DNA of 41,919 nt, taken from NCBI GenBank assembly GCA_020052935.1, contig JAGVOD010000074.1, forward strand, positions 1 through 41,919, given 5' to 3'. The notes under the pieces are model-generated. The model was given only the letters and a program-made list of their open reading frames with translations, did no database searches and had not been told where the DNA came from. Shown here piece by piece: positions 1,871-20,267 of this stretch. Position numbers and translations under genes: made by a program. The stretch is from an archaeon. GTDB lineage: Archaea > Nanobdellota > Nanobdellia > Woesearchaeales > UBA11576. Each line of letters begins with the position of its first letter. Position 1 is the first letter of the stretch.

Positions 1871-2026
1871 TTATTGAAAAGTATGCTGCCGCCCAATGCG
1901 AAGCGTATATCAGTGAGTTAATCACACGCGGCAGGGGGATGCCCCCTACGGGGATGCCGCGTTTCTTGATGTTCTTTCGTTAGCGGAGCCTGGCGGCAGC
2001 CATGCGGAGCATGAGCTTTTCAATAA
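1871..2026. repeat. Structured interspersed element, copy C
   Basis: Outer stem TTATTGAAAAG/CTTTTCAATAA; then GTATG-CTGCCGCC-[C]-A / T-GGCGGCAG-C-CATGC; GCGAAGCG box; inner stem ACGCGGC/GCCGCGT around AGGGGGATGCCCCCTACGGGGAT; 3' GCGGAGC box. Confidence 0.7.
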
Positions 2027-2075
2027 CACGTGCAGGGAGTAAGGTTTATATAAAAAAGCCTTCACTCATGTTTTC

Positions 2076-3170
2076 ATGGGGAGAAAAGATGGTGTTTTGC
2101 TGTTTGCACTGCTAGTCCTTGTTATGCTGATTTCTCTTTCAGGCTGTTTCAGGAAGACAGAAGTCATAATTTGCACCACGCCGCAGACCATTGTCGGCGA
2201 GCGTTGCTGCCTTGACGCGAACAACAACTCCCTCTGCGATGACACCGAGCTCTCAGAGAACGCGACAGCTGCAGGCATCTGCGGCAACGGTATCTGTGAT
2301 GAAGATATGGATGAGAACTGCACTACGTGCTGGAAGGACTGCGGCGCGTGCAAGAAGATTGTCTATGTATATGTCCCCAGGAACTTCACGCTCACCGAGC
2401 TCACCACAGACCTGAACAGGATCACGCGCGACGGGATTAAGTTCAGCAGGGACCGCCAGAACGCGAACAACGTATCTGATTTCCTTTTCTTCGACAAGCC
2501 TGTGCCGAGGTACTTCGCTGATTTCATGGGCATCAAGTACAAGCCGCTCTACAAGAGCAGGTGGATCGTGCTGAGCCAAATCGTCAATGAGAACTATAAT
2601 ATCACCGACCCCACATCATTATTGGATTACGTCAACATGAGCAACTGGTACTTGACATATAACAGGCGGACCGAAGAGATGGTTGCTTACGAGGCGAGGC
2701 TCAACTCAGGCAACGCGACATCAGATTATCCGACGCAGCCTACAGGCTACCAGAAGCAGTTCCGTTATTTGGATTGGACGTTCAAGAATTTCACAAAGAC
2801 AGAGTCTGTGGTCTACGAAGGAGTGTCTATCGTCGGCAACGAGACTGTCGAGTCTGTCTATGCCAGCATCACAGGCTACAACGTGACCTACAAGTACCAT
2901 GAGTACATGGACCTTGATTTCGGTGCTGTCGAGGCGTTCAAGGATGTTGATGAGACGCGGCTGGGCTACATCCACTCGCTTAGCTTCATCTGCGCCAGGA
3001 ACCTCGTCATCACGATATATGACTACGACTATGATGGTGGCTATGAGGGGATCTCCCCCCAAAATGTGCTTGACCAGATAAGCATGAACCGCCAAGCCCT
3101 CCAGAAGACTGCAGAGATGTTCGAGAGCTTGTGTAATGCGAAGTATTCTAACAAGAACTTTGTAGTTTGA
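2076..3170 (+). CDS. Cys-rich lipoprotein with CGNGICDxxMxxxCxTCxxDCG module
   Basis: Signal peptide with LSGC lipobox; CGNGICDEDMDENCTTCWKDCG motif; promoter-like tttatataaaaaa upstream. Confidence 0.8.
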   Translation: MGRKDGVLLFALLVLVMLISLSGCFRKTEVIICTTPQTIVGERCCLDANNNSLCDDTELSENATAAGICGNGICDEDMDENCTTCWKDCGACKKIVYVYVPRNFTLTELTTDLNRITRDGIKFSRDRQNANNVSDFLFFDKPVPRYFADFMGIKYKPLYKSRWIVLSQIVNENYNITDPTSLLDYVNMSNWYLTYNRRTEEMVAYEARLNSGNATSDYPTQPTGYQKQFRYLDWTFKNFTKTESVVYEGVSIVGNETVESVYASITGYNVTYKYHEYMDLDFGAVEAFKDVDETRLGYIHSLSFICARNLVITIYDYDYDGGYEGISPQNVLDQISMNRQALQKTAEMFESLCNAKYSNKNFVV

Positions 3171-3180
3171 TGTATTTCTT

Positions 3181-3365
3181 AGCAGTGCCCCTGCCATTAA
3201 CTACTGAAGCAGCACCACCGCAATTTTGCGGAGCGTTTCACAGCAAAAGAATCAGGCTCGACGGGGGGAAGCCCCATCCGGGGGTGTCGAGCTCATAGTA
3301 GAAGAATAAACAAGCGAAGCATTGCGTGGTGCTGCGAGTTGAGAGGAGCCTTGCGTGGCACTGCT
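3181..3365. repeat. Outer (older?) copy of the structured element enclosing copy B
   Basis: AGCAGTGCC (3181-3189) pairs with GGCACTGCT (3357-3365); the right end GGAGC-CTTGC-GTGGCACTGCT matches the right end of copy A (GGAGC-GTGGC-GTGGAGCTGCT). Confidence 0.5.
3209..3335. repeat. Structured interspersed element, copy B
   Basis: GCAGCACCAC-[C]-GCAAT / ATTGC-GTGGTGCTGC terminal stem; GCGGAGCGTTTCACA box; inner stem GCTCGAC/GTCGAGC; 3' GCGAAGC box. Confidence 0.75.
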
Positions 3366-3369
3366 GATA

Positions 3370-3996
3370 TCACTTCAATATCTTCCCTGTCTCGCAATAC
3401 CAGAGGTATAGGTCGAGTTCTCCTTGCGTCATGCCGCACGCGTCTGCGACGCTTTTCAGCGCCTTCTCTATGATGACGTAGTTCTTTGGGGTCAGCGTCT
3501 TCGGTCTTTTCACGACGCCGTACCTCTCGAGGAAGTCTACGATGTGGAAGTCGATTATCGCGTAATCATCGAAGCCGATATTACGCAGGAAGTGGCTTGC
3601 TTCCTTGTATCCGAGGCCTTTGACGTTTTTCACCAGCCATTCGCGCCGCAAGTCATTGTCCTTGAAAGAAGATATCTTATTCTTGAGCCCAGCAGCATGT
3701 CGTCTCGCTTCGTAGATGTATTTCGCGCGGGTGTTTGGGAACCTGTGCCCCAGCGAGCGTAGTTTTGCGGCGAGCTGTTTTTCAGACAGCGTGAGGAATC
3801 CGTCTCCGACAGCGCGTTGTATCCTTATGCCGCCTTCTGCAGTGTAATTCGCAGTCAGTATGCAGAAGCACATCTCCTTGAAGAGCTCTTTGCTGGGCTT
3901 CTTGCCGAGCGCCTTGAATTCCTTGGTGCGTTGCCGTACTTTTTTCTCCACATCTCCTGATTTCACGTCCATGACGCACTTGAGAACATCTTTCAT
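3370..3996 (-). CDS. ogg: N-glycosylase/DNA lyase, archaeal Ogg2-like (8-oxoguanine glycosylase)
   Basis: HhH-like VKGLGYKEASHFLRNIGFDDYAIIDFHIVDFL; CxxLTANYTAE segment; length ~208 aa. Confidence 0.85.
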   Translation of the reverse strand: MKDVLKCVMDVKSGDVEKKVRQRTKEFKALGKKPSKELFKEMCFCILTANYTAEGGIRIQRAVGDGFLTLSEKQLAAKLRSLGHRFPNTRAKYIYEARRHAAGLKNKISSFKDNDLRREWLVKNVKGLGYKEASHFLRNIGFDDYAIIDFHIVDFLERYGVVKRPKTLTPKNYVIIEKALKSVADACGMTQGELDLYLWYCETGKILK

Positions 3997-4024
3997 TCTG
4001 ATCAAAAAGAATAAAAAATTACGC

Positions 4025-4399
4025 TTACGCCTTCCACAGCCCGTGCAGGTTGCAGTATTCCCGAGCGACAACGTTCTCTGCCACTATCTTGAACACTGCC
4101 TGCGGCTTGTCTCCGGGCTTGAGATACTGTCGATATACTTTGCCGTCTGCGATTATCTCTATCCATTCGATGTAGTGCGCAGCCTCCATCGGATGCTTCT
4201 TAGCTCCGATCTTGACCTTTACCGCCGTCTTTGTTATCTTTAGGACCGGCACGTGCTTCTCCTGCGCAGCGTCTGTCGTGTTGGGGTTGAGCAGTTCCAT
4301 GTTCTTTCCACAGCAGACCAGTGTCCCGCCGCTTGCGTGCACTACCTCGACGATGTTGCCGCACACGCTGCACTTATAGACTTGGTTGAGTTCTGTCAT
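4025..4399 (-). CDS. dfx: Desulfoferrodoxin / superoxide reductase
   Basis: YKCSVCGN...CCGKNME N-terminal Fe site; [20 protein letters not shown] and [10 protein letters not shown] signatures. Confidence 0.93.
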
Positions 4400-4417
4400 T
4401 TTTACACCTCATATGGA

Positions 4418-5335
4418 TTATTGTTTCTGGTTAGCGATGTATCTTGCCGCCTTGAGCAGCGCCATGCAGCCCTGCCCTGCAGCTATGACGTATTGGTATT
4501 CGTGCCCTGACGCGCAGTCTCCTGCCGCGAATATGCCCGGCACGCTCGTGTTCATCTGGCAGTCTATCGCTATATGCCCGTCTGGCTCTGTCTTGACTAC
4601 GTCCTTGAACAGGTCTGTATTCGGCACCCTTCCTATCTCTATTATGACTCCATCGACGAGGATATCTTTTATGTTCCCTTTCCGTCGATACTTCAGGCCT
4701 TTGACGAGTTTGTCTCCTGTTATCTCGAGTGTCTCGGCTTCGAATATCGTCTCTACTTTCGGGTTGCTCTTGATTTTCTCCATCAGGTATGCGTGGCCGA
4801 TGAACTTTTCGCCGATGACTATCACATATATCTTTGATGCTATCTCTTTCATGAAATCTGCTGCTTCCAGCGCAGCATTGCCCCCGCCGACAACAGCCAC
4901 TCTCTTGCCAGAGAACAGCGGGCCGTCGCATATTGAGCAGTACGCCACGCCTTTCCTTGCGAACTTCTCTTCGCCAGGCACATTGAGCTTGCGGGACCGG
5001 GCGCCGGTCGCTATTATCAATGTCTTTGTCTCATACTCCCCTTTGTCGGTTGTCACGATGAAGTTCTTGCCTTTCTTTTTCACGGCTCTGACAGACTCTT
5101 TCTTCAGCTTGACTCCGTTGAATTGCAGCTGTTTCTCTATCGCGTCGCTGAACTCAACGCCGGTCGTCTTTACTATGCCAGGATAGTTGAGTATGTCTCC
5201 GCTGGCCATCATCTGGCCGCCCGCATCTGGGGATATCAGCTCGAACCTCATCCTCTTCCTGGATGCGTATATCGCTGCTGTCGCTCCTGCAATGCCTGCG
5301 CCGATGATTATTGTTTCGTATATGATTTCCACCAC
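4418..5335 (-). CDS. trxB: Thioredoxin reductase-like FAD/NAD(P)H oxidoreductase
   Basis: GAGIAGATAAIYASRKR, redox CSICDG, GGGNAALEAADF, and FAAGDCASGHEYQYVIAAGQG motifs. Confidence 0.93.
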   Translation of the reverse strand: MVEIIYETIIIGAGIAGATAAIYASRKRMRFELISPDAGGQMMASGDILNYPGIVKTTGVEFSDAIEKQLQFNGVKLKKESVRAVKKKGKNFIVTTDKGEYETKTLIIATGARSRKLNVPGEEKFARKGVAYCSICDGPLFSGKRVAVVGGGNAALEAADFMKEIASKIYVIVIGEKFIGHAYLMEKIKSNPKVETIFEAETLEITGDKLVKGLKYRRKGNIKDILVDGVIIEIGRVPNTDLFKDVVKTEPDGHIAIDCQMNTSVPGIFAAGDCASGHEYQYVIAAGQGCMALLKAARYIANQKQ

Positions 5336-5339
5336 TGTT

Positions 5340-5600
5340 TCACTTCTTCGTTTTCTTGGTCTTGCTCATCTTCGCCAGCTCCGCCTCTATCTCCTCAGGC
5401 ACGAAGCCGACTATCATCTTTCCGTTTATCTCTGTCTGCGGCACTCCCAGCTCCCCAGATTTTGATGTCATCTCTTCCACGGCTGAAGAGTCTGAAGACA
5501 CATCTATGTTCTCGAAGTCTATCTTCTTCTCAACGAGCCAGGCCTTGAGCTTCATGCACCAGGGGCAGGTCGGTAAAGTGTATACCTTGATTTTTGCCAT
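5340..5600 (-). CDS. Glutaredoxin/thioredoxin-like protein
   Basis: YTLPTCPWCMKLKAWL CxxC, GVPQTEI cis-Pro. Confidence 0.9.
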   Translation of the reverse strand: MAKIKVYTLPTCPWCMKLKAWLVEKKIDFENIDVSSDSSAVEEMTSKSGELGVPQTEINGKMIVGFVPEEIEAELAKMSKTKKTKK

Positions 5601-5711
5601 GATTCGACCTCCTCAGTCAAGCCATAATCTTGACGCGTATTTAATTTTTGCCATCATGCTCAGGATTTGCAAATCATAAATATTATATACCACAACAGCG
5701 CATTTCGCCTT

Positions 5712-6251
5712 ATGAACCAGAAGCAGATAGGGACTATCGTAGCTATCATCGGCATACTCCTGATGATATTCACCATACTGGCGAAGAACAACGAGGATAG
5801 GCACATCGCCGCTTTTGTCGAGAAGGAAGGCACGTGTTACGCAGCAGATGGGACGTGCCTGCACGAGCAGAGCCGCAACCTTTTCCTTTTTGGAGGCATC
5901 CTGTCTGCGGCATTGATTCTGCTAGGAGCATACCTCATATTCTTCGACAAGACACAGAAGGTGCTTGCAGAGCATCAGGTCAAGGTCTCATCTGCGCTGA
6001 GGGACTTCAAGAGACAAGAGACAGAGAAAGAGACGTTCCATGCTTTCCTGGCAGGGTTCTCTGCTGAAGAGCAGTCAGTGCTTAAAGCGATAAAAGAGCA
6101 GGACGGCATAAAGCAATCAACGCTGAGGTTCAGGACAGGCATGTCCAAGTCATCCCTATCTCTCCTGCTCAAGAGCCTTGAAGAGCGAGGGATAATCTCC
6201 AGGAAGGAATCAGGCAAGACCAACGAGGTATTCCTGAGGAAGAAGTTCTAG
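5712..6251 (+). CDS. Membrane-anchored winged-helix (MarR-type) regulator
   Basis: Two N-terminal TM segments and C-terminal wHTH (IKQSTLRFRTGMSKSSLSLLLKSLEERGIISRKESGKTNEVFLRKKF). Confidence 0.75.
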   Translation: MNQKQIGTIVAIIGILLMIFTILAKNNEDRHIAAFVEKEGTCYAADGTCLHEQSRNLFLFGGILSAALILLGAYLIFFDKTQKVLAEHQVKVSSALRDFKRQETEKETFHAFLAGFSAEEQSVLKAIKEQDGIKQSTLRFRTGMSKSSLSLLLKSLEERGIISRKESGKTNEVFLRKKF

Positions 6252-6338
6252 ATACCCACGATAATTTTATAAATGAGGCAAAATTCTTCATGTACCAGAG
6301 GTGTAGGTAGCCTCAGAGCCTAATTCTGAGATATCAAT

Positions 6339-6851
6339 ATGACAAGGATACTAGAGTTGCTAAAGAAGGCAGGAGAAGCCAGTCCCAACTTCAGGGCCAG
6401 GTTGACCTATGACCATGGACCGCTTCCACCTATCAGGGCATATCTTCACAATGCAGGCATTGACGAAGCATTCGACTGCCCCAAACGCAAGACCGTGGAA
6501 GCCAAAGTGGAAGAGCACCTGATAAAGACATTGATAATGAACCGGGGGATCATCAACGGCGCAGACTACCTCCTCGCAGCGATATGGGGCGATAAAGGCG
6601 CGAAGATGATAGACCTATTCAGATACTCAGGCCTTGGCGGATGGCCAGGCAACCCTGACTTTGCAGGATTCGTATTCAGGAACGGCGTCTACATGCCTGA
6701 AAAGAGAGAACTCACTTGCGGCGACACGCTCATCGTGCTCGGCCAAGAGGAAAGATACAGGCGCACAACCAAAGACCTCAAAGAGTACGTGGAACATTCT
6801 CCAAGCATAGATGGCCTTGTCTCTGATACTGGCCAAGTCATCTGTTTATAA
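6339..6851 (+). CDS. Hypothetical protein
   Basis: 170-aa ORF with ATG and upstream TATA-like ttttataaat; no recognised domain. Confidence 0.6.
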   Translation: MTRILELLKKAGEASPNFRARLTYDHGPLPPIRAYLHNAGIDEAFDCPKRKTVEAKVEEHLIKTLIMNRGIINGADYLLAAIWGDKGAKMIDLFRYSGLGGWPGNPDFAGFVFRNGVYMPEKRELTCGDTLIVLGQEERYRRTTKDLKEYVEHSPSIDGLVSDTGQVICL

Positions 6852-6987
6852 ATGACCTGGAACGGTTATAAACGGTCCTGGACGATAATTCTGTAGTTAT
6901 AGCCGTTTTTGACACTTAGTTTCGCGTCGAATGGTATTAATAAACGCTGCTTCTACAAGAATGCATCAATCCGCAAGGTGATGTGAA

Positions 6988-7194
6988 ATGAAAATGATCT
7001 GTATCGATGTAAAAGGGATGCACTGCCCAAGCTGCGAGACCCTCATAAAAGAGGGCTTGGAGGAGCTGGCAGGAGTGAAGTCAGCAGCGGTCTCGCACAA
7101 GACAGGTAAAGTCGTTGTCGAGTTCGATGAGAAGAAGACAAGCGAGAAAGAAATCAAGCAGGTCGTCAGGGGCCTGAAATACCAGGTACACTAA
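6988..7194 (+). CDS. Heavy-metal-associated (HMA) copper chaperone
   Basis: GMHCPSCETLIKEGLEEL motif, 68 aa, beta-alpha-beta pattern. Confidence 0.9.
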   Translation: MKMICIDVKGMHCPSCETLIKEGLEELAGVKSAAVSHKTGKVVVEFDEKKTSEKEIKQVVRGLKYQVH

Positions 7195-7195
7195 G

Positions 7196-8677
7196 ATGAA
7201 ACGCAAAAGAACAGGATTCATAGCAGAAGGCACCACGTGCGAGAGCTGCGCAGAAGTGATCAAGAGGCAAGCCCTGAAAGTAGAAGGCGTAGAGCACGCA
7301 GAGTTTGACTACGCGACAGAGACCGGCAGCGTGACATTTGACCCTGAAAAGACCGACATTGACGAGATACTCTACAAGATAGAAGAGAAAGGGTACAGGT
7401 GCTTCATACTGGCAGAGGAGAAGAAGCACGAAGCGCCAAAGACAAGGGTAAACAAAAGCATAGTAGGATGGGTATTCGGGATAATCGGGATACTCATAGC
7501 AGGCTACTTCATACTGCAGCTCGCAGACAAGATAAGCCTTCCCCAACTGAGCCAGAACATGAGCTATGGGCTGCTGTTCGTCGTCGGCTTGCTGACCGGC
7601 TTCCACTGCATAGCGATGTGCGGCGGGTTCGTCGTCTCATACACTGCAAAGGCCGCGCAGGAAGGCAGGAAATCATACTCATCCCACCTGATGTACGCAA
7701 TAGGCAAGACCGCGTCATACACAATCATCGGAGCGATGTTCGGCCTGGTCGGTTCGATAATAGCATTCACGCCCATGATGAGAGGCATCGCAGGCGTCCT
7801 TGCAGGAATCTTCTTGCTTCTGTTCGGGCTCAAGATGCTCAACGTCTTCCCTGCACTGAGGAGGATACAGTTCAGGACTCCGAGGTTCATCGCCCGCTTT
7901 GTCGGCGAAGAATCCGAGTCAAAATCAAGCCCGCGGGTGATAGGCCTGCTGAATGGATTGATGATAGCGTGCGGTCCGCTACAGGCGATATACATAATGG
8001 CAGCAGGCACAGGAAGCATGGTAGAAGGTGCTAAGCTTCTTTTCATCTTCGCCATAGGGACATTGCCAGTCATGCTGGGCTTCGGCTACCTGACAAGCTT
8101 CATCTCCAGCAAGATGACGCACAAGATACTCAAGGCATCTGGAGCGATAGTCATAGTGCTCGGCCTGATAATGCTCAACAACGGACTGAGGCTGACAGGC
8201 ATAGGATATGATGTCGGGTCGATAGTGAAGTCAGTCAGCGCAGCAGGAAGCGGGAAAGATATAGCAACAGGGACGCTGACAGATAATGTCGCGCTGCTCA
8301 ACGACGGGTTCCAGGAGATAAGGATGGACGTCACAGCAAGAGGATGGGAGCCAGACACGTTCGTACTCAAGAAAGGCGTTCCTGTAAAGTGGATCATCAA
8401 CGGCAAGGAGATAACGAACTGCAACCGGGCCATACAAGTGCCGAAACTAGGGCTAGCATTTGACATCAAACCAGGCGAGCAGACAATAGAATTCACGCCG
8501 ACAGAGTCAGGCACGATACCCTGGAGCTGCTGGATGGGCATGATACCAGGAACATTTATAATAAAGGATGACATCAGCGACGTCAATCCAGAAGAGATCA
8601 AGGCAGGCGCCGCACCATCCAGGCCCGCAGGAACTTGCGGCATGGGCGGAGGAGGCGGCTGCGGCTGCGGCATGTAA
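7196..8677 (+). CDS. HMA + TauE/SafE-family membrane domain + cupredoxin-like domain fusion
   Basis: N-terminal [15 protein letters not shown] block [22 protein letters not shown] typical of the SafE/TauE/DsbD-like group; C-terminal periplasmic [51 protein letters not shown]; Cys/Gly/Met tail [13 protein letters not shown]. Confidence 0.88.
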
Positions 8678-8693
8678 TAAAAAAGAGGTCAAG

Positions 8694-10889
8694 ATGAAAA
8701 CAGCCAATCTTCGCATAACAGGGATGCACTGCGCCAGCTGCGCAGCGATAGTCAACAAAGCGCTCTCCAAGACCGAAGGAGTTAAGGAAGCGAATGTCAA
8801 TTTCTCTACTTCGAAAGCTCTCGTGACATTCGACGAGAAAAAGCTAGACGAGAAAAAGCTCGTGCAGATAGTGAAGGGCAAAGGCTACGGCGCTGAGCTG
8901 ATACAAGACCACGAAGACCCCGAAAAACAGGCAAAGCTGCAGTCAGCAGAGATAAAGAAAGTGCGGGACCTGTTCCTGACAAGCCTCGTGTTCACAGTGC
9001 CCGCATTCATTATCGGCATGGTGTTGATGTGGTTCGGCGTAGAAGTGCCGTACAAGGAATACCTGCTATGGCTCCTCGCCACGCCGGTGCAATTCTACGT
9101 CGGATGGCAGTTCTACAAAGGGACATGGCACTCGCTGAAGAACAAGACAGCGAACATGGACACGCTTATCGCAGTGGGGACCAGTGCAGCATACTTATAC
9201 AGCGTCTATGTTGTCCTGTTTGCGCCGCAACTCGGGCAGTATTTTGAGACGTCCGCGATACTGATAACGCTCGTTGTGCTGGGCAAGTACCTCGAAGCAG
9301 CAGCCAAAGGCAAGACATCAGAAGCCATAAAGAAGCTCATAGGATTATCACCGAAGATCGCGACAGTCATCAGGAAAGGCAAGGAGATACGGATAAGCGT
9401 GGACGACGTAGTGGTGGGAGACATAATAGTAGTAAAGCCTGGCGAAAAGATACCTGTAGACGGCAAAGTGGTCGAGGGAGACTCTTCTGTGGATGAGAGC
9501 ATGATAACCGGAGAGAGCATACCTGTAGAGAAGAAGAAAGGAGACAAGGTCATAGGCGGGACTATTAACAAGCACGGCAGCCTCAGGTTTGTCGCGACGA
9601 AAGTAGGTGAGAATACGACGCTGTCGCACATAATCAGGCTCATCGAGGATGCACAAGGCAAGAAAGCGCCGATACAGAGGTTCGCAGATGTCGTCTCTGC
9701 ATATTTCGTCCCGATAGTCATCATCATCGCAATAGCGACTTTCCTGGTCTGGCATTTCGCGCTCGACAAGGAATTCTCATTTGCGCTCATAACCTCTGTC
9801 GCAGTCCTCGTCATCGCATGCCCCTGCGCGCTCGGCCTTGCTACGCCTACTGCGATAATGGTAGGCACGGGAAAAGGCGCAAAGCACGGCATACTGATCA
9901 AGGGCGGGGAGGCGCTCGAGACAGCGCACAAGCTGAGCTTCGTGGTGTTCGACAAGACAGGCACGATAACAAAAGGCACGCCAGAAGTCACAGACATAAT
10001 CCCTCTCAACAAGGAAAAGGAAGAGAAGATACTCAAGATAGCAGCCAGCGTCGAGAAACCATCAGAGCACCCGCTCGCAGAAGCAATCGTGAAGAAGGCA
10101 AAGGCAGGGAAGATTGCGTTAGGGAAGGTCACAGCATTCAAAGCGATTCCAGGTTACGGAATCAAAGCCAAGCTCAATGAAAAACAATACTACTTCGGCA
10201 ACGCCAAGCACATGAAAGAGAACAGGATAGATGTGAGAAAGATCGGCGACAAGGTGCGACTTCTGGAAGAGCAGGGGAAGACCGTGATGATGCTCGCGGA
10301 GAACAAGAAGCTCATCGGCATCATAGCTGTCGCTGACACTATCAAACAGAGCTCAAAGGAAGCTGTGCAGAAGCTCGAGCACATGGGCGTCACAGTATAC
10401 ATGATAACAGGCGACAACGTGCGGACTGCCCGAGCGATAGCAAAGCAGGCAGGCATAGAGCATGTCTTTGCAGAAGTGCTGCCAGACCAGAAAGCAGGCT
10501 ACGTAAAGACGCTGCAGAAGAAAGGCAAGGTTGCGATGGTCGGCGACGGCATCAATGACGCTCCGGCTCTTGCGCAGGCAGACATCGGCATTGCGATGGG
10601 CTCAGGAACAGATGTAGCGATGGAGACAGGCAACATAGTGTTGATGAGGAACGACCTTCTCGATGTCCCAAAAGCGATAAGGCTCAGTAAGGTCACGATG
10701 TCGAAGATAAAGCAGAACATGTTCTGGGCACTGTTCTACAACGTGCTCGGCATCCCGATAGCCGCAGGCATACTTTACCCCGCAACAGGTTGGCTCCTCT
10801 CGCCGATAATAGCTGGGGGCGCGATGGCGTTGAGCAGCGTGAGCGTTGTGACGAACTCGCTGATGCTGAAGTACAAGAGCCTTGTCTGA
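8694..10889 (+). CDS. copA: Copper-translocating P-type ATPase
   Basis: [58 protein letters not shown]. Confidence 0.96.
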
Positions 10890-11965: not shown

Positions 11966-12228
11966 ACGAAGCTGACCTCAATCGTGTCTGGCAGGAATTC
12001 ACAGAGAAGAATGATTTCAAGCTCAATCCAGACCAGAAGCATGTTGACATGATAACCAAGGGCATTCTCATCAATGAGCAGAAATATGGATTGAAGCTAT
12101 GTCCTTGTAGGTTGCGGAACGGCACCCCCGAGCGGGACCTTGAGCTTATCTGCCCCTGCAATTTCAAGGCTCATGATACCTGGCAGAAGAAGGGCATGTG
12201 CTGGTGCGGTTTGTTCGTCAAGAGGTAA
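11962..12228 (+). CDS. Ferredoxin-thioredoxin reductase catalytic-chain-like [4Fe-4S] protein
   Basis: TTG start overlaps the upstream TGA; CPCRLRNGTPERDLELICPCNFKAHDTWQKKGMCWCGLF Cys pattern. Confidence 0.88.
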   Translation: MNEADLNRVWQEFTEKNDFKLNPDQKHVDMITKGILINEQKYGLKLCPCRLRNGTPERDLELICPCNFKAHDTWQKKGMCWCGLFVKR

Positions 12229-12806: not shown

Positions 12807-12959
12807 CCCCAAAAAGAAGACATCAGGAACTGTCCTAAGGCATTCTTAGAGAATCTCCGAGGCTTTCACCAGCGATATCTTTATAAACTTATTTAAACTC
12901 CCTGTTTGGCAGCAAGGAGCATTGCTCTCTGCTAACAGAACAGTCGAGGGGGTATAAAT

Positions 12960-13052
12960 ATGAAACTCTGGGCAATGTCGGATGATGACGATGATAATGA
13001 CAATGACAGCGATGACTATGGTGGTGATGACGACTCTGACAAGGATGATTGA
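12960..13052 (+). CDS. Asp-rich microprotein (30 aa)
   Basis: ATG..TGA: MKLWAMSDDDDDNDNDSDDYGGDDDSDKDD*; upstream TATA-like elements. Confidence 0.4.
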   Translation: MKLWAMSDDDDDNDNDSDDYGGDDDSDKDD

Positions 13053-13119
13053 TTGCCTCATAATCTTTTGATTTTTTGCTTTTGCCGCCTTCTGAAGAGA
13101 GTGTCAAGGAAACCAGAAC

Positions 13120-14442
13120 ATGAAGCTACGCCAACTGCCTGCAGATTTCAAGGTCGAGGAGATTGGTGATATACCCATCTCTAAGACCAAGGATAATTTC
13201 AAGCTGTACACCCTTGAGAAAGAAGGTATCGAGACATTCTACCTCCTGAGCTATCTTTCCAAGAAGAACAACATCCCTAGTTCTGAGCTTTCTGTCGCAG
13301 GGCTTAAGGACAAGCACGCAGTTACAAAGCAGTACTTGACGATTCCTGCGAAGTATGACCTGATGACCACGCAGGAGAAGAACTTCAGCATAAGGTTCGT
13401 GGGATACACCAACCGCAAGCTGAAGCTTGGCGACCTGCAGGGGAACCGTTTCGAGATTACTGTGCGGGACATAAAGAAGGGAGAGCTTGACGGGGTGTAT
13501 GAGAAAGCAAGGACTATCGCCCAGATCGGTGTCCCTAACTATTTTGATTCTCAGCGTTTCGGCAGCGCGCTTAGCGGCGAGTTCATCGCGAAGTGCATCC
13601 TCCAGAAGGATTACGAGAGGGCTGTCAAGATATTCCTGACTAGCTTCACAAAGTCTGAGAAGCGCAGCACAAAAGACGAGAAGCGGAGCATACTTACTAA
13701 CTGGGGGGACTTGTCGAGGTTGAGGCTCAGCAACAAGACCCTGGCGATTCCGATAGAGGAATACCTGAGGACAAAGAGCTGGCTTTCTGCGTACAAGCGC
13801 ATCCCTCCGAATCTTAGGGAGATATTCATCAGCGCATACCAGAGCTGGCTCTGGAATGAGTGCGTCAAGGAGCTTTTGAGGAGGAACCTCAACACAAAGT
13901 ACCTCTATTCCATAGAGTACAACATTGGCAGCCTGCTGTTCTACAAAAAGTTGGCGCATGACGAGATGCAGAGGCTGCCGAAGGCATTCAAGACTGTCAG
14001 CGACGAGATTGTTGCTTATTGGCAATGCAGGAGCAGCTCCACCGCCACATTGCGCAGCGTTTCACAGAGAGATAATCAGACTCGACAGGGGGACGTCCCT
14101 TACGGGGATGTCGAGTCTGGAGAAAGAGAATCAAAAAGCGGAGCGTGGCGTGGAGCTGCTGAGAAAGATTCCATGAGACTTGAAAAGAGCATCATCGATA
14201 AGATACTCGCGAAAGAGGGGATCATGATAGAAGATTTTAAGATAAAGGACGTGGTCGGCAACTTCTTCAAGACGAGGGAGAGGGAAGTCATCCTCAGGCC
14301 GTCTGGTTTCAGCATAAAGCAGCCGATGATAGACGAGCTGAATGACAACGGCCGCGACAGCCGTTTCAAGATAGTTGTCTCATTCACTCTGCCCAAGGCC
14401 AGCTACGCGACGATAATAATCAAACGTTTATTCAACCAGTAA
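13120..14442 (+). CDS. truD: tRNA pseudouridine synthase TruD, with a 43-codon in-frame insertion
   Basis: VAGLKDKHAVTKQYLTI, GNRFEITVRDI, GVPNYFDSQRFG, FISAYQSWLWNE motifs. Confidence 0.93.
   Translation: MKLRQLPADFKVEEIGDIPISKTKDNFKLYTLEKEGIETFYLLSYLSKKNNIPSSELSVAGLKDKHAVTKQYLTIPAKYDLMTTQEKNFSIRFVGYTNRKLKLGDLQGNRFEITVRDIKKGELDGVYEKARTIAQIGVPNYFDSQRFGSALSGEFIAKCILQKDYERAVKIFLTSFTKSEKRSTKDEKRSILTNWGDLSRLRLSNKTLAIPIEEYLRTKSWLSAYKRIPPNLREIFISAYQSWLWNECVKELLRRNLNTKYLYSIEYNIGSLLFYKKLAHDEMQRLPKAFKTVSDEIVAYWQCRSSSTATLRSVSQRDNQTRQGDVPYGDVESGERESKSGAWRGAAEKDSMRLEKSIIDKILAKEGIMIEDFKIKDVVGNFFKTREREVILRPSGFSIKQPMIDELNDNGRDSRFKIVVSFTLPKASYATIIIKRLFNQ
14032..14160. repeat. Structured interspersed element, copy A, inside truD
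   Basis: AGCAGCTCCAC-[C]-GCCAC / GTGGC-GTGGAGCTGCT; GCGCAGCGTTTCACA; CAGACTCGACA/TGTCGAGTCTG; 3' GCGGAGC. 129 bp, starts and ends at codon boundaries. Confidence 0.8.
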
Positions 14443-14447
14443 GATAT

Positions 14448-14514
14448 AGCGAATTCAGTAAATAGTGGAACATTTTGCAACCACCACGTGGCGGGTTTAT
14501 GGACTGAATTCGCT
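14448..14514. repeat. Perfect 12-bp inverted repeat with 43-nt loop left of TA module
   Basis: AGCGAATTCAGT (14448-14459) / ACTGAATTCGCT (14503-14514). Confidence 0.85.
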
Positions 14515-14517
14515 TAT

Positions 14518-14554
14518 TAGCCAATTGATGTTCACATATTTAATCAATTGGCTA
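14518..14554. repeat. Perfect 12-bp inverted repeat with 13-nt loop
   Basis: TAGCCAATTGAT (14518-14529) / ATCAATTGGCTA (14543-14554). Confidence 0.85.
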
Positions 14555-14643
14555 TAGCATTCTTGTTTCTACAGAGCTTAAAAATCATAAGTTTTAAATA
14601 TGCCTTTGGCAATATCTATGATGACGTGTCTGAATCAGCAACC

Positions 14644-14829
14644 ATGCAGGGAATATATGAAGAATTGAAGTCTTTAAAAGAGGAAGTGCTATTCATAAAG
14701 AAGCACATGTTTGACCCGGACACTATAATGACAACAGAGGAAAAGAGCATATTTGAACGAAGCATGAAAGAGTTCAAGGAAGGCAAGACAGTTCCCCTAG
14801 TTTCGGTAAAAAAGAAGCTGGGGTTGTAA
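14644..14829 (+). CDS. Putative RelB-like antitoxin
   Basis: 61-aa acidic/helical ORF immediately upstream of a RelE-like gene; MQGIYEELKSLKEEVLFIKKHM...; TTTTAAATATG TATA-like element upstream. Confidence 0.75.
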   Translation: MQGIYEELKSLKEEVLFIKKHMFDPDTIMTTEEKSIFERSMKEFKEGKTVPLVSVKKKLGL

Positions 14830-14834
14830 GAAGG

Positions 14835-15068
14835 ATGTTCAGTGTAGAGTTCTCGAGTTCTGCAGACAAATTCATTGGAAAGTGCGAGAGACCGCTCGCG
14901 GAAAGGCTTTTGGACAGGATTGAGAAGTTGTCAGAAGACCCATTTCCCGCAGATGTCAAGCGCGTCGTGAACATGAAGGAGAAGGTGTTCCGTGTAAGGG
15001 TGGGTGATTATCGGATACAATACTCAGTGATATATGAGAAGAATGTGATATTTATCTCAGATATATAG
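14835..15068 (+). CDS. RelE/ParE-family toxin
   Basis: VEFSSSADKFIGK...ERLLDRIEKLSEDPFPADVKRVVNMKEKVFRVRVGDYRIQYSVIYEKNVIFISDI. Confidence 0.9.
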   Translation: MFSVEFSSSADKFIGKCERPLAERLLDRIEKLSEDPFPADVKRVVNMKEKVFRVRVGDYRIQYSVIYEKNVIFISDI

Positions 15069-15106
15069 CAAATGACACAATTTTTTATACAATATTGTCA
15101 TTTGCT
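15067..15106. repeat. Perfect 11-bp inverted repeat right of TA module
   Basis: AGCAAATGACA (15067-15077) / TGTCATTTGCT (15096-15106). Confidence 0.8.
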
Positions 15107-15193
15107 TATTACGAACAGGCAATTATTTTCGTATTATTATTTTTGTCTGCGAGTATAGATAAACGACCAAGAGCATACGACTAAGCACGACCT

Positions 15194-16963
15194 TCATTTC
15201 TTATGGAGTTTTTTTGCGCGCGACGCGACCACTGTGCCACGGGCAGTCCCATCGAGGATGCTGTTGTCGGCGTTGATGCTGAACCAGTCGTAGTAGTCGC
15301 TGAGGCCGAGCACCACAGCCCGGTCCGTATCTGTGTCTGGTCTGTTGTTTAGTCTCCACAAGTAAGGTTTGTATCCGCTCAGCCATTCACAGGCATTACA
15401 GAAATTGTCAAGGTCTGATATACCAAGCAATGCATGGACTGGCGGTTGAAGGCCGCTTGTTGCATTGACCCAACCATTTGGTCCAACAAGGTCTTCTTCG
15501 ACAGTTCTTTGTTCTGGCTGCATGTAATCATGGATTGCATCATCATTTCCGCTTGCGTACCTTATCTCCTGGACAACCTCCTTGTCTTTATTGGCGCGAT
15601 ACCTTGCCCTCGTGCCTGTCATCATCCAGTGCTTCTTAAAATCCTTGGCGAACATTTCTTTGACTTTTTCGACGAGTTTTTTCTGTCCTGTATCAGGGTG
15701 TGCCCTGTTCTCGTAGAGTGCCATTATGGTCGCCGTGTAGAGTTCAGCGTCAGCCAGCTTCCATTCTTTTCCTTTCAGCCTTTCGATGTGCTGGTCCTGC
15801 GTCAGGGATTCTCCGCCGTGCAGCAGTTCCTTGCTCCAGTCGACAGTCCTCTCTTCCTTGTTGTAGATTACGCCGTGTATCCTGTACCTGTCAGCAAGCT
15901 CTTCTATGAAGAATCCGCTGCCTGAATATGATGTCACGAGTGTTGCAGGCAATGCTTTCTCTCCTTCGACAAGCACTCCGTTCTGGAGCTCTTTCTTGGC
16001 TTCATTGTGTCTTGTCCTGACAAGGTATTTGAAAAGCCCGTCAGGCACGAGCCTCGAAAAGAATCTTTTCAGGCGTCCTCCTTCCTTTCTCCTGGAGAGT
16101 GTTTTCCCTTCCTTTATCTGCTGCAGATACTTTGCTACTTCGTCGATGCTTTTCGGCCTGAGCTCAGGGTCAAAATGCGTGAGCTGGTCGACAAGAATGC
16201 CAAGCGATGGGTTTTTGAACTCGAACTTGCCTGAATAATTCAGGTTGAAGCCGTCAAGCACGTCTTCAGGAGAGATGCCTGACGCGAGTTTAAGTATTGT
16301 AGGTCCGATGCTGTACAAGTCACTTTTATTGGTAGCTTGCCCCGCGAAGACTTCCGGCGCGCTGTAGCCCATTGTGCCGAACATCGTCGAGCCTCCGATA
16401 GTCTTGGCAATCCTCTGCTGGACGATGCCAAAATCAATCAGGTATAGCTTTCCGCTTTCTTTGTCAAGCATGATGTTGCTTGGCTTGATGTCGCGGTGTA
16501 CCACATGCGGAGTCTGGCCGTGCAGGTATTTCAGCACTTCAGTAAGTTGTAGCATGACGTCTACAATCTTCTCTTCAGCCAGCGGTCCTTCCCTCTCGAC
16601 TATCTTCTCAAGGCATTCGCCAGGCACCAGTTGCTGCGCCATGAACAAAGAATAATCTCTTCCTTCCTGGTGTTCAAACAAGTCATGGACTTTAGGGATC
16701 TGTGGGTGGTCAAGTCCTTTCAGCACTTCATATTCCCTGCCAAACAGGTCCACGCCCTTGAAAGCGTCAAGTCCGTCAATTTTCTTTCCGAACCTGTGCT
16801 CGCGGACGCAATACTCAACACCATCCTTCTCAGATCGATAAGCTATTGCAAGTCCACCGCTACCTAGAACCTCAAGAAGCCTGTAGCCATTGACTATCCT
16901 GATTGGATTGCCCGGCTCGGCCTGCATTATGATAGCCTCTTGTCCTGTCGCCGCTTCAGTCAT
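15194..16963 (-). CDS. Hanks-type Ser/Thr protein kinase with uncharacterised C-terminal region
   Basis: LGSGGLAIAYR, HRDIKPSNIMLD, LIDFGIVQ, GTMGYSAPEVF; ~300-aa C-terminal extension without a recognised family. Confidence 0.9.
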   Translation of the reverse strand: MTEAATGQEAIIMQAEPGNPIRIVNGYRLLEVLGSGGLAIAYRSEKDGVEYCVREHRFGKKIDGLDAFKGVDLFGREYEVLKGLDHPQIPKVHDLFEHQEGRDYSLFMAQQLVPGECLEKIVEREGPLAEEKIVDVMLQLTEVLKYLHGQTPHVVHRDIKPSNIMLDKESGKLYLIDFGIVQQRIAKTIGGSTMFGTMGYSAPEVFAGQATNKSDLYSIGPTILKLASGISPEDVLDGFNLNYSGKFEFKNPSLGILVDQLTHFDPELRPKSIDEVAKYLQQIKEGKTLSRRKEGGRLKRFFSRLVPDGLFKYLVRTRHNEAKKELQNGVLVEGEKALPATLVTSYSGSGFFIEELADRYRIHGVIYNKEERTVDWSKELLHGGESLTQDQHIERLKGKEWKLADAELYTATIMALYENRAHPDTGQKKLVEKVKEMFAKDFKKHWMMTGTRARYRANKDKEVVQEIRYASGNDDAIHDYMQPEQRTVEEDLVGPNGWVNATSGLQPPVHALLGISDLDNFCNACEWLSGYKPYLWRLNNRPDTDTDRAVVLGLSDYYDWFSINADNSILDGTARGTVVASRAKKLHKK

Positions 16964-17097
16964 TTTTCCTCCAGCAGCTTGCGTACTGCATACTCAAAGA
17001 GGTGTGACTTATTGCGGAATGTGCCGTCCCTGAGGCGCTCTTTCGCCCCCATTAAGACGTTTTCATCAACTGTTATAGATATCTGATATTTTGCCAT
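16960..17097 (-). CDS. Ribbon-helix-helix (CopG-like) 45-aa protein
   Basis: Read from reverse complement: MAKYQISITVDENVLMGAKERLRDGTFRNKSHLFEYAVRKLLEEK*; ATGA overlap with kinase start. Confidence 0.75.
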   Translation of the reverse strand: MAKYQISITVDENVLMGAKERLRDGTFRNKSHLFEYAVRKLLEEK

Positions 17098-17147
17098 TAT
17101 GTTCTGATGGAAAATATCACAACTATTTAAACCTTTTGTTTTTTCAC

Positions 17148-17159
17148 CACTAATTAGTG
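17148..17159. promoter_or_regulatory. Perfect 12-bp palindrome, candidate RHH operator
   Basis: CACTAATTAGTG flanked by T-run/A-run; next to the TATA-like TTTAAATAGTT (bottom strand) of the RHH-kinase operon. Confidence 0.5.
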
Positions 17160-17230
17160 ATAAAAAACATAAAAATACGACCAGGCCCCGTTTTATTTAT
17201 AAAACCTTCCGGCGGGATGAAATCTCAACA

Positions 17231-17342
17231 ACCGGATTCAGTTCCGGTGAATTACCGGATTCACATCCGGCAAACAGGTAAATACAAAAGTTATTTAAAT
17301 AGGGTGTGCGTCTTATTATCAAATACCGGATTCACATCCGGT
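17231..17342. promoter_or_regulatory. Three palindromic operator-like sites upstream of ATPase
   Basis: ACCGGATTCAGTTCCGGT (17231-17248), ACCGGATTCACATCCGG (17254-17270), ACCGGATTCACATCCGGT (17325-17342), bracketing TTATTTAAATAG (17291). Confidence 0.65.
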
Positions 17343-17390
17343 AAATCTCCGGGTGCGGTTCAGTAAGCTAAACGTCTTGCTCAACCAGGG

Positions 17391-18824
17391 GTGCAGAAGA
17401 TGGATTTTTACAACAGGTCAGCAGAATTGAGGGATATCACATCGAAGTACGATGAGCTGTCATCAGGGGAGCTTTGCATCATATATGGCCGGAGAAGGTT
17501 AGGAAAGACTGCTTTCATAAAAAAATTCATGGGCCAGATCAAAGGCAAGGCGGTCTATTACTTCGTGAACAAGACCAACAGGAAAGAGCTTCTGGAGTTG
17601 CTGTCCGACAGCATATTTGACCAGACCGGGGAGCGGGAAATATTCACGGAGTGGGAACACTTTTTTGGCTACCTTCATAAGAAAGCATCAGAAGATAAGT
17701 TTGTGTTTGTGATGGATGAGTTCTCAAGGCTCAAGGAGCATTCCCCTGACTTCATCACGAAATTCCAGGATTTCTGGGATTCAAAGCTGTCAAAGACAAA
17801 GATAATGTTCATCGCAATTGGCTCTTCCATGAGCATGATGTTTGACATATTCATGGACAAGACAGCGCCGTTGTATGGAAGGATGACCTGGAAGATACCG
17901 TTCAGGCCGTTCAGGTACGTTGATTTTAGGGGGATGTTCAGTGAGGTGGATGAAAGCAAGAGAGTGGAACTGTTCTCTGTATTCGGAGGCACCCCTCATT
18001 TCCTTTGGTTTGTGAAGAAACACGCAGACAAGCCGCTCATGGATATCATTGACCGGCTTGTTCTTTCAAGGACCGCCCCACTGAAGGATGAACCTAACAA
18101 CTTTATAACCATGGAGCTTAAGAAAGAGACGAATTACAATTCCGTGCTCCATGCGATGGCGAAAACAAACGGGACGAGGGAGGAGATGGTTGTGCACACA
18201 GGCATAGACCAGAAAGACATCGACTATTATCTCAACAACTTAAGCGATCTTTTGTGCATAACAAAAAAGCTCACGCCGGTATTTCACGACAAGGGGCAGA
18301 AGACCAGGTATCGGTTTGATGATAATTTCTTTGGTTTTTGGTACAAGTACATCTTCCCGAACTGGTCTTTGATTGAATTGGGCAATGCCGAGATGCTGAA
18401 AAGCAAGATATCCTCGGACATAAACAGTTTTACAGGACACAGGTTTGAGGAGATAATACAGGAACTCCTGGTATTATATAATGGCAAGAAGATAAAAGGG
18501 CTGTCGATAGACTTCACTGAGATAGGCCCGTGGTGGGGCAGGAACAGGAAAGGGGAAACTGAAGAGATAGACCTCCTTGCCAATGACCCGCAAAGCAGGC
18601 AACAGATCGTATGTGAGATTAAATGGACGGGCAGCCTTGTTGACTCAGGCTGCGTAAGCAGTCTCGTTGAAAAATCAAGATTATTGAACACTGCTGGAAA
18701 GATCAATTACCTCATCGTATCCAGGTCAGGATTTGAATCAGGATGCATTAAATACATGGATGAGAAAGGAATTGTACATCTGGATTTAAAAGAGATGAGT
18801 GAATTATTCGATGATGTGGAATAG
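17391..18824 (+). CDS. Archaeal AAA ATPase (PF01637-type) with C-terminal DUF234/PD-(D/E)XK-like region
   Basis: Walker A YGRRRLGKTAFIKKF; Walker B FVFVMDEFSRL; C-terminal EEIDLLANDPQSRQQIVCEIKWTG. Confidence 0.85.
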   Translation: MQKMDFYNRSAELRDITSKYDELSSGELCIIYGRRRLGKTAFIKKFMGQIKGKAVYYFVNKTNRKELLELLSDSIFDQTGEREIFTEWEHFFGYLHKKASEDKFVFVMDEFSRLKEHSPDFITKFQDFWDSKLSKTKIMFIAIGSSMSMMFDIFMDKTAPLYGRMTWKIPFRPFRYVDFRGMFSEVDESKRVELFSVFGGTPHFLWFVKKHADKPLMDIIDRLVLSRTAPLKDEPNNFITMELKKETNYNSVLHAMAKTNGTREEMVVHTGIDQKDIDYYLNNLSDLLCITKKLTPVFHDKGQKTRYRFDDNFFGFWYKYIFPNWSLIELGNAEMLKSKISSDINSFTGHRFEEIIQELLVLYNGKKIKGLSIDFTEIGPWWGRNRKGETEEIDLLANDPQSRQQIVCEIKWTGSLVDSGCVSSLVEKSRLLNTAGKINYLIVSRSGFESGCIKYMDEKGIVHLDLKEMSELFDDVE

Positions 18825-18825
18825 G

Positions 18826-20073
18826 ATGGAAAAGACACTCGAGATCAAATCAATAGCATCGACAGGGAATGGCGCGGGCTACATAGAGGAAGGTGGCTTC
18901 AAGGTGCCTTACTTCGTCCCGTTCACCTGCCCCGGAGATGTTGTGAAAGTAAGGGAGATAGAAAAGAGAAAGAAATACGTGGAGGCAGAGCTGGTCGAGC
19001 TCGTGAAGGCGTCTCCTCACCGCAGCGACGTGAAGTGTAAGCACTACACAATATGCGGCGGCTGTAATCTCCTGCACATAAAATACGAGACGCAGCTCGG
19101 ATGCAAAAAAGAGGTTCTCGCTCATGTCCTGGCAAGGTCAGGCATATCCTTCCCAGAGATAGAAGTGATGTCGTTGGACAATCCTTTCAATTATCGTTTC
19201 CGCGCAAAGGCTTTCTTCGAGTGCAGGGACGGCAAGCTCATCTGCGGGTTCAACCAGCGCAAGACCAACTACGCTGTTAGGATAGATGAGTGCCACATCG
19301 TGCACAAGAAGATCCTCGAAGCCATAAAGGCGATAAACAAGGCCAAGCTTACGATCCAGAACAGGTTCATAGGTTTCTTTGTCGTGAATGAAGAAGACTT
19401 GTCAGTCACCCTGCAGCTCACTATCAGCAGGAAGTTTCCAGGATTTGAGGAGGCGTTCAAAGGAACAGTGGATGAGTTTGTGTACCGGGGGGAGAAGCAG
19501 GAATATTCTCTGAGGTATAGCTATGAGATAGACAAAAAGGAATACTCGCTCTCATACTCTTCATCATTCATCCAGTCCAACCTCGCGCTCAACAAGAGGA
19601 TGGTGGAAGCTTTGTTTGATTGCCTGAAAGGCATCAAGCAGAAAAAAGCTCTTGCAGACCTTTACTGCGGCAATGGCAACCTGTCGTTGCCTCTCACGGC
19701 GGTGTTCGGGAAAGTGGTCATGGTCGAGGGCGAGCCATACTCGTTCGCCAACCTGCAGAAGAACATCCAGCTTAATGCCGTAAGCAATGCTGAGGCATGC
19801 AACTCTGACGTGCGCGAGTTCTCGATGAAGAAGCTGTCTTTCGATGCGGTCATACTGGACCCTCCGCGCATAGGCTGCGGAGAGGATGTCATCAATAATA
19901 TCGCAAGATGGTCTCCTGAGACCATCATCTATGTCTCGTGCAATCCAGTCGTCGCATCCAAAGAGCTGAAGTTGCTTATGGGCGACAGGTACAGGATAGA
20001 CAAGACTGTGATGATCGACATGTTCCCGCACACGAATCATATAGAGTTCATCGCATTCCTGAGGAGGAGATAG
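18826..20073 (+). CDS. RumA/RlmD/TrmA-family RNA (uracil-5-)methyltransferase
   Basis: TRAM-like N-terminus, CKHYTICGGCNLLHIKYETQLGCKK Fe-S motif, DLYCGNGNLSLPL, LDPPRIGC, YVSCNPV. Confidence 0.92.
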   Translation: MEKTLEIKSIASTGNGAGYIEEGGFKVPYFVPFTCPGDVVKVREIEKRKKYVEAELVELVKASPHRSDVKCKHYTICGGCNLLHIKYETQLGCKKEVLAHVLARSGISFPEIEVMSLDNPFNYRFRAKAFFECRDGKLICGFNQRKTNYAVRIDECHIVHKKILEAIKAINKAKLTIQNRFIGFFVVNEEDLSVTLQLTISRKFPGFEEAFKGTVDEFVYRGEKQEYSLRYSYEIDKKEYSLSYSSSFIQSNLALNKRMVEALFDCLKGIKQKKALADLYCGNGNLSLPLTAVFGKVVMVEGEPYSFANLQKNIQLNAVSNAEACNSDVREFSMKKLSFDAVILDPPRIGCGEDVINNIARWSPETIIYVSCNPVVASKELKLLMGDRYRIDKTVMIDMFPHTNHIEFIAFLRRR

Positions 20074-20093
20074 CATTGAAAAGTGTGTATTTG

Positions 20094-20267
20094 GCGGCGC
20101 CGCCGTGAGTTTGCGAGGCGTTTAGTCAACAACAACGCGGGCGTTGTCGGGGGTCTCTCCGACCGAAGGGAGCGAGATGCCAAAAACCTTCGGTTTTTGA
20201 GCAGCCCCCTACGGGGGGACAGCCCATAGAACAAAACTCACGCACGCCGAGCCTCACGCGGCGCCGC
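20094..20267. repeat. Structured interspersed element, copy D (with apical insertion)
   Basis: GCGGCGCCGC-[C]-GTGAG / CTCAC-GCGGCGCCGC; GCGAGGCGTTTAGTCA box; TGTC-GGGGG ... GCCCCC-TAC-GGGGG-GACA; extra hairpin CAAAAACC-TTC-GGTTTTTG. Confidence 0.7.

What the first reader, a model, noticed from the sequence alone, without database searches (positions are those of the whole stretch)
1871..20267. New family of at least four interspersed 127-174 bp structured elements with a conserved bulged-C terminal stem
Seen directly at 1881-2005 (C), 3209-3335 (B), 14032-14160 (A) and 20094-20267 (D). All are one long hairpin with the same architecture: terminal stem with one unpaired C on the 5' arm (A GCAGCTCCAC-C-GCCAC/GTGGC-GTGGAGCTGC; B GCAGCACCAC-C-GCAAT/ATTGC-GTGGTGCTGC; D GCGGCGCCGC-C-GTGAG/CTCAC-GCGGCGCCGC; C GTATG-CTGCCGCC-C-A/T-GGCGGCAG-C-CATGC), then a 5' box GCGNRGCGTttMa, an inner stem, an apex, and a 3' box GC[GC][GA]AGC. 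Stem sequences differ between copies while pairing is kept (CTCC/GGAG vs CACC/GGTG; CTCGAC/GTCGAG vs CGCGGC/GCCGCG), so structure rather than sequence is selected. I know no named archaeal repeat with this signature; novelty is inference.
Basis: partly seen in the sequence, partly recalled or inferred. Interest (0 to 1): 0.92.

Follow-up and report, generated by a model that had tools for sequence, protein, structure and literature searches.

The report
Strand-locked hairpin mobile elements in Woesearchaeota
This archaeal genome carries about 130 copies of a folded, 120-190-letter mobile DNA element that almost always points the same way relative to the chromosome's own strand bias, whatever the neighbouring genes do, which suggests that its spread or survival is tied to DNA replication.

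Summary
The four structured copies are real, and a covariance model built from 12 copies finds about 130 in the 1.64 Mb draft genome and relatives in 25 of 59 genomes of the same order. A pattern for the apex hits only Woesearchaeota/Nanoarchaeota MAGs among 84,980 species. Rfam has no match. The copies are not independent RNA genes. They are intergenic whatever the neighbouring gene strand. Their outer stem is 99.3% Watson-Crick with almost no G-U, despite many double changes. At least one class is a MITE, with terminal inverted repeats and 8-9 bp target duplications (9 bp in a relative with fresh copies). Copy A is an in-frame insertion in truD. The unexpected feature is polarity: 122 of 127 copies point along the same chromosomal strand, as judged by a strong third-codon A/T asymmetry that does not depend on gene direction. 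I read these as trans-mobilised, structured miniature elements whose insertion or survival is tied to replication direction. No Y1 or DDE_Tnp_1 transposase was found in the host, so the mobilising enzyme is unknown, and leading versus lagging polarity is undetermined. New variant of a known kind.

The parts
14032..14160 (+). Copy A (type 1). Outer stem GCAGCTCCAC-C-GCCAC / GTGGC-GTGGAGCTGC; 5' box GCGCAGC at 14052-14058; inner stem ACTCGAC/GTCGAGT; apex AGGGGGACGTCCCTTACGGGGAT; 3' box GCGGAGC at 14138-14144. In-frame insertion inside truD.
   Evidence: Sequence; CM hit 139.8 bits; fold z -6.5; homologue G017 truD lacks the insert
13120..14442 (+). truD (tRNA pseudouridine synthase D) reading frame interrupted by, and open through, copy A
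   Evidence: Pfam TruD 2.4e-70; alignment with the 51%-identical homologue without insert
3209..3335 (+). Copy B (type 1 core), between a + gene (ends 3170) and a - gene (Ogg-like, ends 3370)
   Evidence: CM hit 132.9 bits
3181..3365 (+). Second outer stem around copy B (AGCAGTGCC 3181-3189 with GGCACTGCT 3357-3365): nested form
   Evidence: Flank pairing analysis
1868..2029 (+). Copy C, full extent (type 2, TIR class): terminal inverted repeat GTGTTATTGAAAAG (1868-1881) / CTTTTCAATAACAC (2016-2029) around the core 1881-2005, with a GCGGAGC mini-hairpin CATGCGGAGCATG at 2001-2013
   Evidence: Inverted repeat 14/14; CM hit 98.5 bits
1860..1867 (+). Probable degenerate target-site duplication of copy C, left (TGCAGAGG)
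   Evidence: 6 of 8 match with the right side; class-wide enrichment
2031..2038 (+). Probable degenerate target-site duplication of copy C, right (TGCAGGGA)
20094..20267 (+). Copy D (type 1) with about 45 extra bases forming additional hairpins at the apex; intergenic between a tRNA (uracil-5-)-methyltransferase gene (ends 20073) and a methyltransferase gene (starts about 20279)
   Evidence: CM hit 41.6 bits, E 9e-7; Pfam

Best explanation
The copies belong to a large, diverse superfamily of non-autonomous, highly folded mobile DNA elements (MITE-like) of Woesearchaeales. Each has nested stems around a conserved core: two GCGNAGC boxes facing each other, an inner stem, and an apex GGGGGATGCCCCCTACGGGG. 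At least the class with terminal inverted repeats (such as GGCNCTGTTGAAAA or GGCTCTGTCCCGAAT) was inserted by a cut-and-paste type transposase supplied in trans, leaving 8-9 bp target duplications. The stems are kept perfectly Watson-Crick at the DNA level, by template-switch correction of inverted repeats and/or because a hairpin form is a substrate. Insertion or survival depends on replication direction, so nearly all copies point the same way along the chromosome. Shown: family, copy number, structure, covariation, target duplications in one class, in-frame gene insertions, strand polarity. Inferred: identity of the transposase, coupling to the replication fork (for example through the sliding clamp PCNA or exposed lagging-strand template), and the correction mechanism.
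For: Copy number and family: 133 matches in the genome and matches in 25 of 59 relatives. Mobility: 8-9 bp direct repeats in about 14 copies against about 1 expected, concentrated in the TIR class; a relative (L238/G062) with near-identical 165-bp copies, 15-bp TIRs, and 9-bp duplications matching at 8 or 9 of 9 positions in 7 of 9 assessable insertions; copy A absent from a truD homologue and a second in-frame insertion in a methyltransferase gene. DNA-level stems: outer helix of type 1 1092/1100 Watson-Crick, 5 G-T, 1 A-C. Polarity: 97 of 99 copies on multi-copy contigs share one orientation against 72+-3 expected; independent of gene strand; third-codon A/(A+T) 0.38 for genes on the element strand against 0.75 for genes on the other, p=3e-58; 122/127 copies concordant, TIR class 36/36; unsupervised check 59 to 2; same polarity over 388 kb (4/4) and 235 kb (4/4) in two other genomes. 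Precedent: orientation bias of insertion sequences with replication through sliding-clamp binding (PMC5371812).
Against: No autonomous partner was found: neither Y1_Tnp nor DDE_Tnp_1 is in G000, G001 or G002, and no long TIR pair appeared in the relative with fresh copies. Type 1 copies, the majority, have no detectable target duplications. In same-genus relatives orientation coherence is weaker, chiefly among low-scoring copies, and G025 is mixed. The two cdc6 contigs give opposite polarity, and in G060 the element orientation does not flip at cdc6, though that genome has no strand skew.
Confidence: 0.66

Rival explanations
1. Single-strand (HUH/Y1, IS200/IS605- or REP/RAYT-like) elements: the folded strand is excised from and inserted into the lagging-strand template, giving orientation bias without target duplications. 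This could hold for type 1 copies, with the TIR class a separate MITE wrapper around the same core.
For: Strong orientation bias and subterminal hairpins are the hallmark of IS608-type transposition (PMC5371812, PMC6006769). Type 1 copies show no target duplications. The + strand folds slightly better than the - strand.
Against: No Y1_Tnp in G000, G001 or G002, which carry 130, 35 and 19 copies, and presence of Y1_Tnp does not follow element presence over 59 genomes. The TIR class has 8-9 bp duplications, which Y1 transposition does not make, yet shows the same polarity (36/36).
Confidence: 0.14
2. A functional chromosomal signal: hairpins that work only as single strands on one replication strand (for example priming or fork-polarity sites), dispersed by transposition and then kept in one orientation by selection.
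For: Near-perfect polarity in both classes, conserved unpaired boxes and apex, about one copy per 12 kb, and persistence of old degenerate copies with correct polarity.
Against: 34 of 59 relatives have no detectable copies, so any function is dispensable. Copy number varies widely between species of one genus (about 130, 35, 19 and 0). Two copies sit inside protein genes.
Confidence: 0.12
3. Structured RNA family (regulatory RNA, ribozyme or mRNA element).
For: Massive covariation and stable folds as RNA; box-middle positions pair more than expected (47 against 35 of 65).
Against: Orientation is independent of flanking genes: up-/down- 32, up+/down+ 30, up-/down+ 25, up+/down- 18. G-U is nearly absent from the outer stem. 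No Rfam relative. Target duplications.
Confidence: 0.05
4. Rickettsia-palindromic-element-like coding repeats, adapted to in-frame insertion in proteins.
For: Two copies (A in truD and one in a methyltransferase gene) are in frame, sense, and read in the same frame ending SGAWRG.A.
Against: Only 4 of 134 copies lie inside called genes; copy lengths are not biased to multiples of 3, and stop-free frames are barely above shuffled (1.62 against 1.44 per copy).
Confidence: 0.03

Closest known systems
Prokaryotic MITEs, especially those with GGC...-type inverted repeats and 9-bp duplications (IS5 family, IS903-like ends; resemblance of the ends recalled from memory)
   Same: Short, non-coding, multi-copy, terminal inverted repeats, 8-9 bp target duplications, mostly intergenic
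   Different: Long covarying nested stems and conserved internal boxes; one TIR frame carries several unrelated hairpin cores; near-absolute orientation along the chromosome; no partner transposase found
IS200/IS605 and REP/RAYT systems
   Same: Hairpin-based elements whose orientation follows replication direction (PMC5371812, PMC6006769)
   Different: No Y1 transposase in hosts; 8-9 bp target duplications in one class; elements about four times longer than REPs
Rickettsia palindromic elements (from memory)
   Same: Palindromic, about 100-150 bp, can lie in frame inside protein genes
   Different: 97% of copies here are not inside genes, and there is no reading-frame adaptation
Integron attC sites (considered)
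   Same: Imperfect hairpins with extrahelical bases, sequence-variable stems
   Different: No copy has both R-box motifs at its ends (0 of 130); interspersed singly, not in cassette arrays

Membership tests
MITE (miniature inverted-repeat transposable element) | Terminal inverted repeats | tested here: met
   TIR class: perfect 14-15 bp TIRs. Most type 1 copies show only the core stem or remnants of GTATTTGTTTAGCT.
MITE (miniature inverted-repeat transposable element) | Target-site duplication of constant length | tested here: met
   9 bp in G062; 8-9 bp in about 14 own copies. Not seen in type 1.
MITE (miniature inverted-repeat transposable element) | No coding capacity | tested here: met
   Median 131 bp, stop-free frames barely above shuffled
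MITE (miniature inverted-repeat transposable element) | Autonomous partner with the same ends | tested here: not met
   No DDE_Tnp_1 in own genome, no 0.6-3 kb TIR pair in fetched loci apart from two neighbouring MITEs, none in G062. Genomes are incomplete, and other transposase families were not searched.
IS200/IS605 or REP/RAYT | Y1 HUH transposase in the genome | tested here: not met
   PF01797 absent from G000, G001 and G002
IS200/IS605 or REP/RAYT | Insertion without target duplication | tested here: inconclusive
   True for type 1, false for the TIR class
IS200/IS605 or REP/RAYT | GTAG-type tetranucleotide at the foot of the hairpin | tested here: not met
   15 of 130 copies
Rfam RNA families | Match to a covariance model | tested here: not met
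   0 at gathering score in the window; 0 at E<=1 in L238 and L171
Integron attC | RYYYAAC / GTTRRRY ends | tested here: not met
   0 of 130 copies have both
ISfinder-listed element | Sequence match in ISfinder | not testable with these tools
   No ISfinder copy is held

The most novel reading that the evidence does not exclude
The core hairpin is a replication-strand-specific DNA signal carried by transposable frames. It acts only as exposed single strand on one side of the fork, so insertion or selection fixes it in one orientation across the chromosome. This would be a class of mobile, replication-polar hairpins with a role at the archaeal fork.
Probability: 0.15. Interest if true: 0.88.

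Novelty: new variant of a known kind. Interest (0 to 1): 0.7.

Why it matters
It describes an apparently undocumented, order-wide family of structured miniature mobile elements in uncultivated archaea whose orientation follows the chromosome's strand bias in 96% of copies. That makes coupling between archaeal replication and transposition testable, and offers a ready orientation marker for ordering draft contigs. It is also a warning case: overwhelming covariation without G-U intermediates can come from DNA-level upkeep of inverted repeats and should not be read automatically as conserved RNA.

Tried and rejected
RNA gene or regulatory RNA: rejected on transcription-independent orientation, near absence of G-U, no Rfam match and target duplications. 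Y1 transposase as mobiliser: PF01797 absent where copies abound. DDE_Tnp_1 partner: absent from the own genome, and those in relatives do not carry the same ends. attC sites: no R boxes. Coding-adapted repeats: no frame or length bias. GCGNAGC boxes as independent DNA mini-hairpins: possible, but relatives (for example G025, GCAAACGCT facing AGCGTTTGC) and pairing of the box middles (47 against 35 expected of 65) favour the boxes facing each other. Polarity from cdc6: contigs C57 and C60 give opposite answers, and G060 has no skew. tRNA orientation: too few tRNAs to use. Viral contigs: no match. The simple box pattern alone was uninformative, because its reversed control also matched often.

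Full report
WHAT WAS CHECKED. The four structures exist at the stated coordinates. Copies A, B and C fold far better than shuffled sequence as DNA (z -6.5, -3.4, -3.1). From the own genome, which is 1.64 Mb in 117 contigs and 85% complete, a box pattern and a stem script gave further copies. Twelve of these were aligned, and a covariance model R1 was built. R1 finds 133 matches in the genome, about 120 of them at E<1e-7. In the fetched neighbourhoods it finds 134 copies at E<=0.001. The consensus of the common form is GGCAGTGCCACCGCCATTTTGCGAAGCGTTTCACAG...ATCA-CTCGACAGGGGGATGCCCCCTACGGGGATGTCGAG...ATCAACAAGCGTAGCCTGGCGTGGCACTGCC.

DISTRIBUTION. R1 matches occur in 25 of 59 genomes of the same order. 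A broader model R2 finds 35, 19, 42 and 21 copies in four close relatives. A pattern for the apex, scanned over 84,980 prokaryote species, hits 47 stretches, all from MAGs titled Woesearchaeota, Nanoarchaeota, Nanoarchaeia or unnamed archaeon. Viral contigs give none. Rfam gives none. Full-text searches found no description of such a family; ISfinder could not be consulted.

ANATOMY. Copies have nested stems. Type 1 (A, B, D; about 95 copies) shows the GCAGYGCCACCGCC/GGCGTGGCRCTGC stem. About 17 of these lie inside a second, similar outer stem, and some have remnants of an outer repeat GTATTTGTTTAGCT. Type 2 (C; about 37 copies) has a shorter core stem, an extra GCGNAGC mini-hairpin in the 3' arm, and an outermost inverted repeat such as GGCGTTATTGAAAAG, GGCTCTGTAGAAAGT or GGCTCTGTCCCAAGA. 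The apex is variable, and 26 of 134 copies carry about 50 extra bases of hairpins there. The two boxes face each other; their middle bases pair more often than expected (47 against 35 of 65).

STRUCTURE IS KEPT AT THE DNA LEVEL. Across 134 copies, 603 cells have both partners changed (shuffles 129+-15) and the covariation score is 0.583 (shuffles 0.159). In 85 clean type 1 copies the outer helix is Watson-Crick in 1092 of 1100 cells, with 5 G-T and 1 A-C, although columns vary freely (for example TA 45, CG 37, GC 3). RNA stems evolving one base at a time would show many G-U intermediates. Perfect two-arm changes fit template-switch correction of inverted repeats, a documented route to apparent covariation (PMC8794818), or a strict need for a DNA hairpin. 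This step is inference. The inner helix is less perfect (544 of 589 Watson-Crick, 18 G-T, 8 A-C).

MOBILITY. Copy A is an insertion in truD: the homologue in G017 (51% identical over the search alignment) lacks it, and the frame reads through. A second in-frame insertion lies in a methyltransferase gene of L144; both are read in the same frame. Four copies lie inside called genes and at least 105 are intergenic, in sequence that is about 80% coding. Direct repeats of 8-9 bp flank the TIR class (about 14 copies with score >=5 against about 1 expected from mismatched flanks) but not type 1. In a relative, L238/G062, 165-bp near-identical copies have 15-bp inverted repeats and 9-bp duplications, perfect in two and 8/9 in five more of nine assessable. 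In that genome the same ends also enclose other, unrelated hairpin cores. This is a MITE signature. The ends resemble IS5/IS903-type ends by memory only.

MOBILISER. The Y1 transposase family is absent from G000, G001 and G002, and its presence does not track the elements. DDE_Tnp_1 is absent from G000 and from most carriers, and the ones found do not carry these ends. In G062 no longer element with the same ends was seen. The enzyme is unknown; draft genomes leave room for it, and other transposase families were not searched.

POLARITY. On contigs with several copies, 97 of 99 share the contig's majority orientation; random orientation gives 72+-3. Orientation does not follow genes: both neighbours antisense 32, both sense 30, divergent 25, convergent 18. 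The genome has a strong strand asymmetry: third-codon A/(A+T) averages 0.38 for genes on the element strand and 0.75 for genes on the other, with 96% of genes separable and p=3e-58. Using this, 122 of 127 copies are concordant, and 36 of 36 in the TIR class. Part of that test is supervised, but an unsupervised version gives 59 to 2. In other genomes, 4 of 4 copies over 388 kb and 4 of 4 over 235 kb on single contigs share a strand. In same-genus relatives the signal is weaker, mainly where weak matches are involved, and in G025 it is absent. I take the asymmetric strand to be a replication strand; this is inference. Which strand is leading could not be settled: the two cdc6 contigs disagree, and G060 has no skew and no flip at cdc6.

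MECHANISM. Replication-dependent orientation is documented for IS200/IS605 elements, for Tn7 through TnsE and the sliding clamp, and for several DDE insertion sequences whose transposases bind the clamp; one IS1634 transposase also binds archaeal PCNA (PMC5371812). The simplest account here is trans-mobilisation of a folded, asymmetric element by a fork-coupled transposase, with stems corrected by template switching during replication. What is unusual is the strictness (36/36 in a class with target duplications) and the elaborate conserved core, which a MITE does not need. That leaves open a direct role of the core at the fork.

VERDICT. A real, apparently undescribed, order-wide superfamily; ordinary in being MITE-like, unusual in its nested structure and strand lock.

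Noticed in passing
G000 contigs, e.g. L227 1724-5290 (A3=0.90) against element-strand genes (A3 about 0.38): The host genome has an extreme third-codon A/T strand asymmetry with almost no G/C skew, which is unusual and could be used to orient and order contigs.
   Followed up: partly
L238 and G062 (L327-L350): One TIR frame (GGCTCTGTCCCGAAT, 9-bp duplications) encloses at least three unrelated hairpin cores in the same genome, suggesting exchange of cores between MITE frames.
   Followed up: partly
L226 215-1441 and L227 4-144: Two different cdc6/orc1 genes; the L227 one starts a cdc6-DP1-DP2 (PolD) operon. Local strand composition gives opposite polarity at the two sites.
   Followed up: partly
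L144 140-895 (-): A methyltransferase gene carries an in-frame copy within its SAM-binding fold, ending in the same peptide motif (SGAWRG.A) as the truD insertion.
   Followed up: partly
window 17244-17352: Imperfect inverted repeat of 27 bp (CCGGTGAATTACCGGATTCACATCCGG) not related to this family.
   Followed up: no
L127, L155, L166 contig ends: Several contigs end inside a copy, so assembly breaks at these repeats and the true copy number is probably higher.
   Followed up: no
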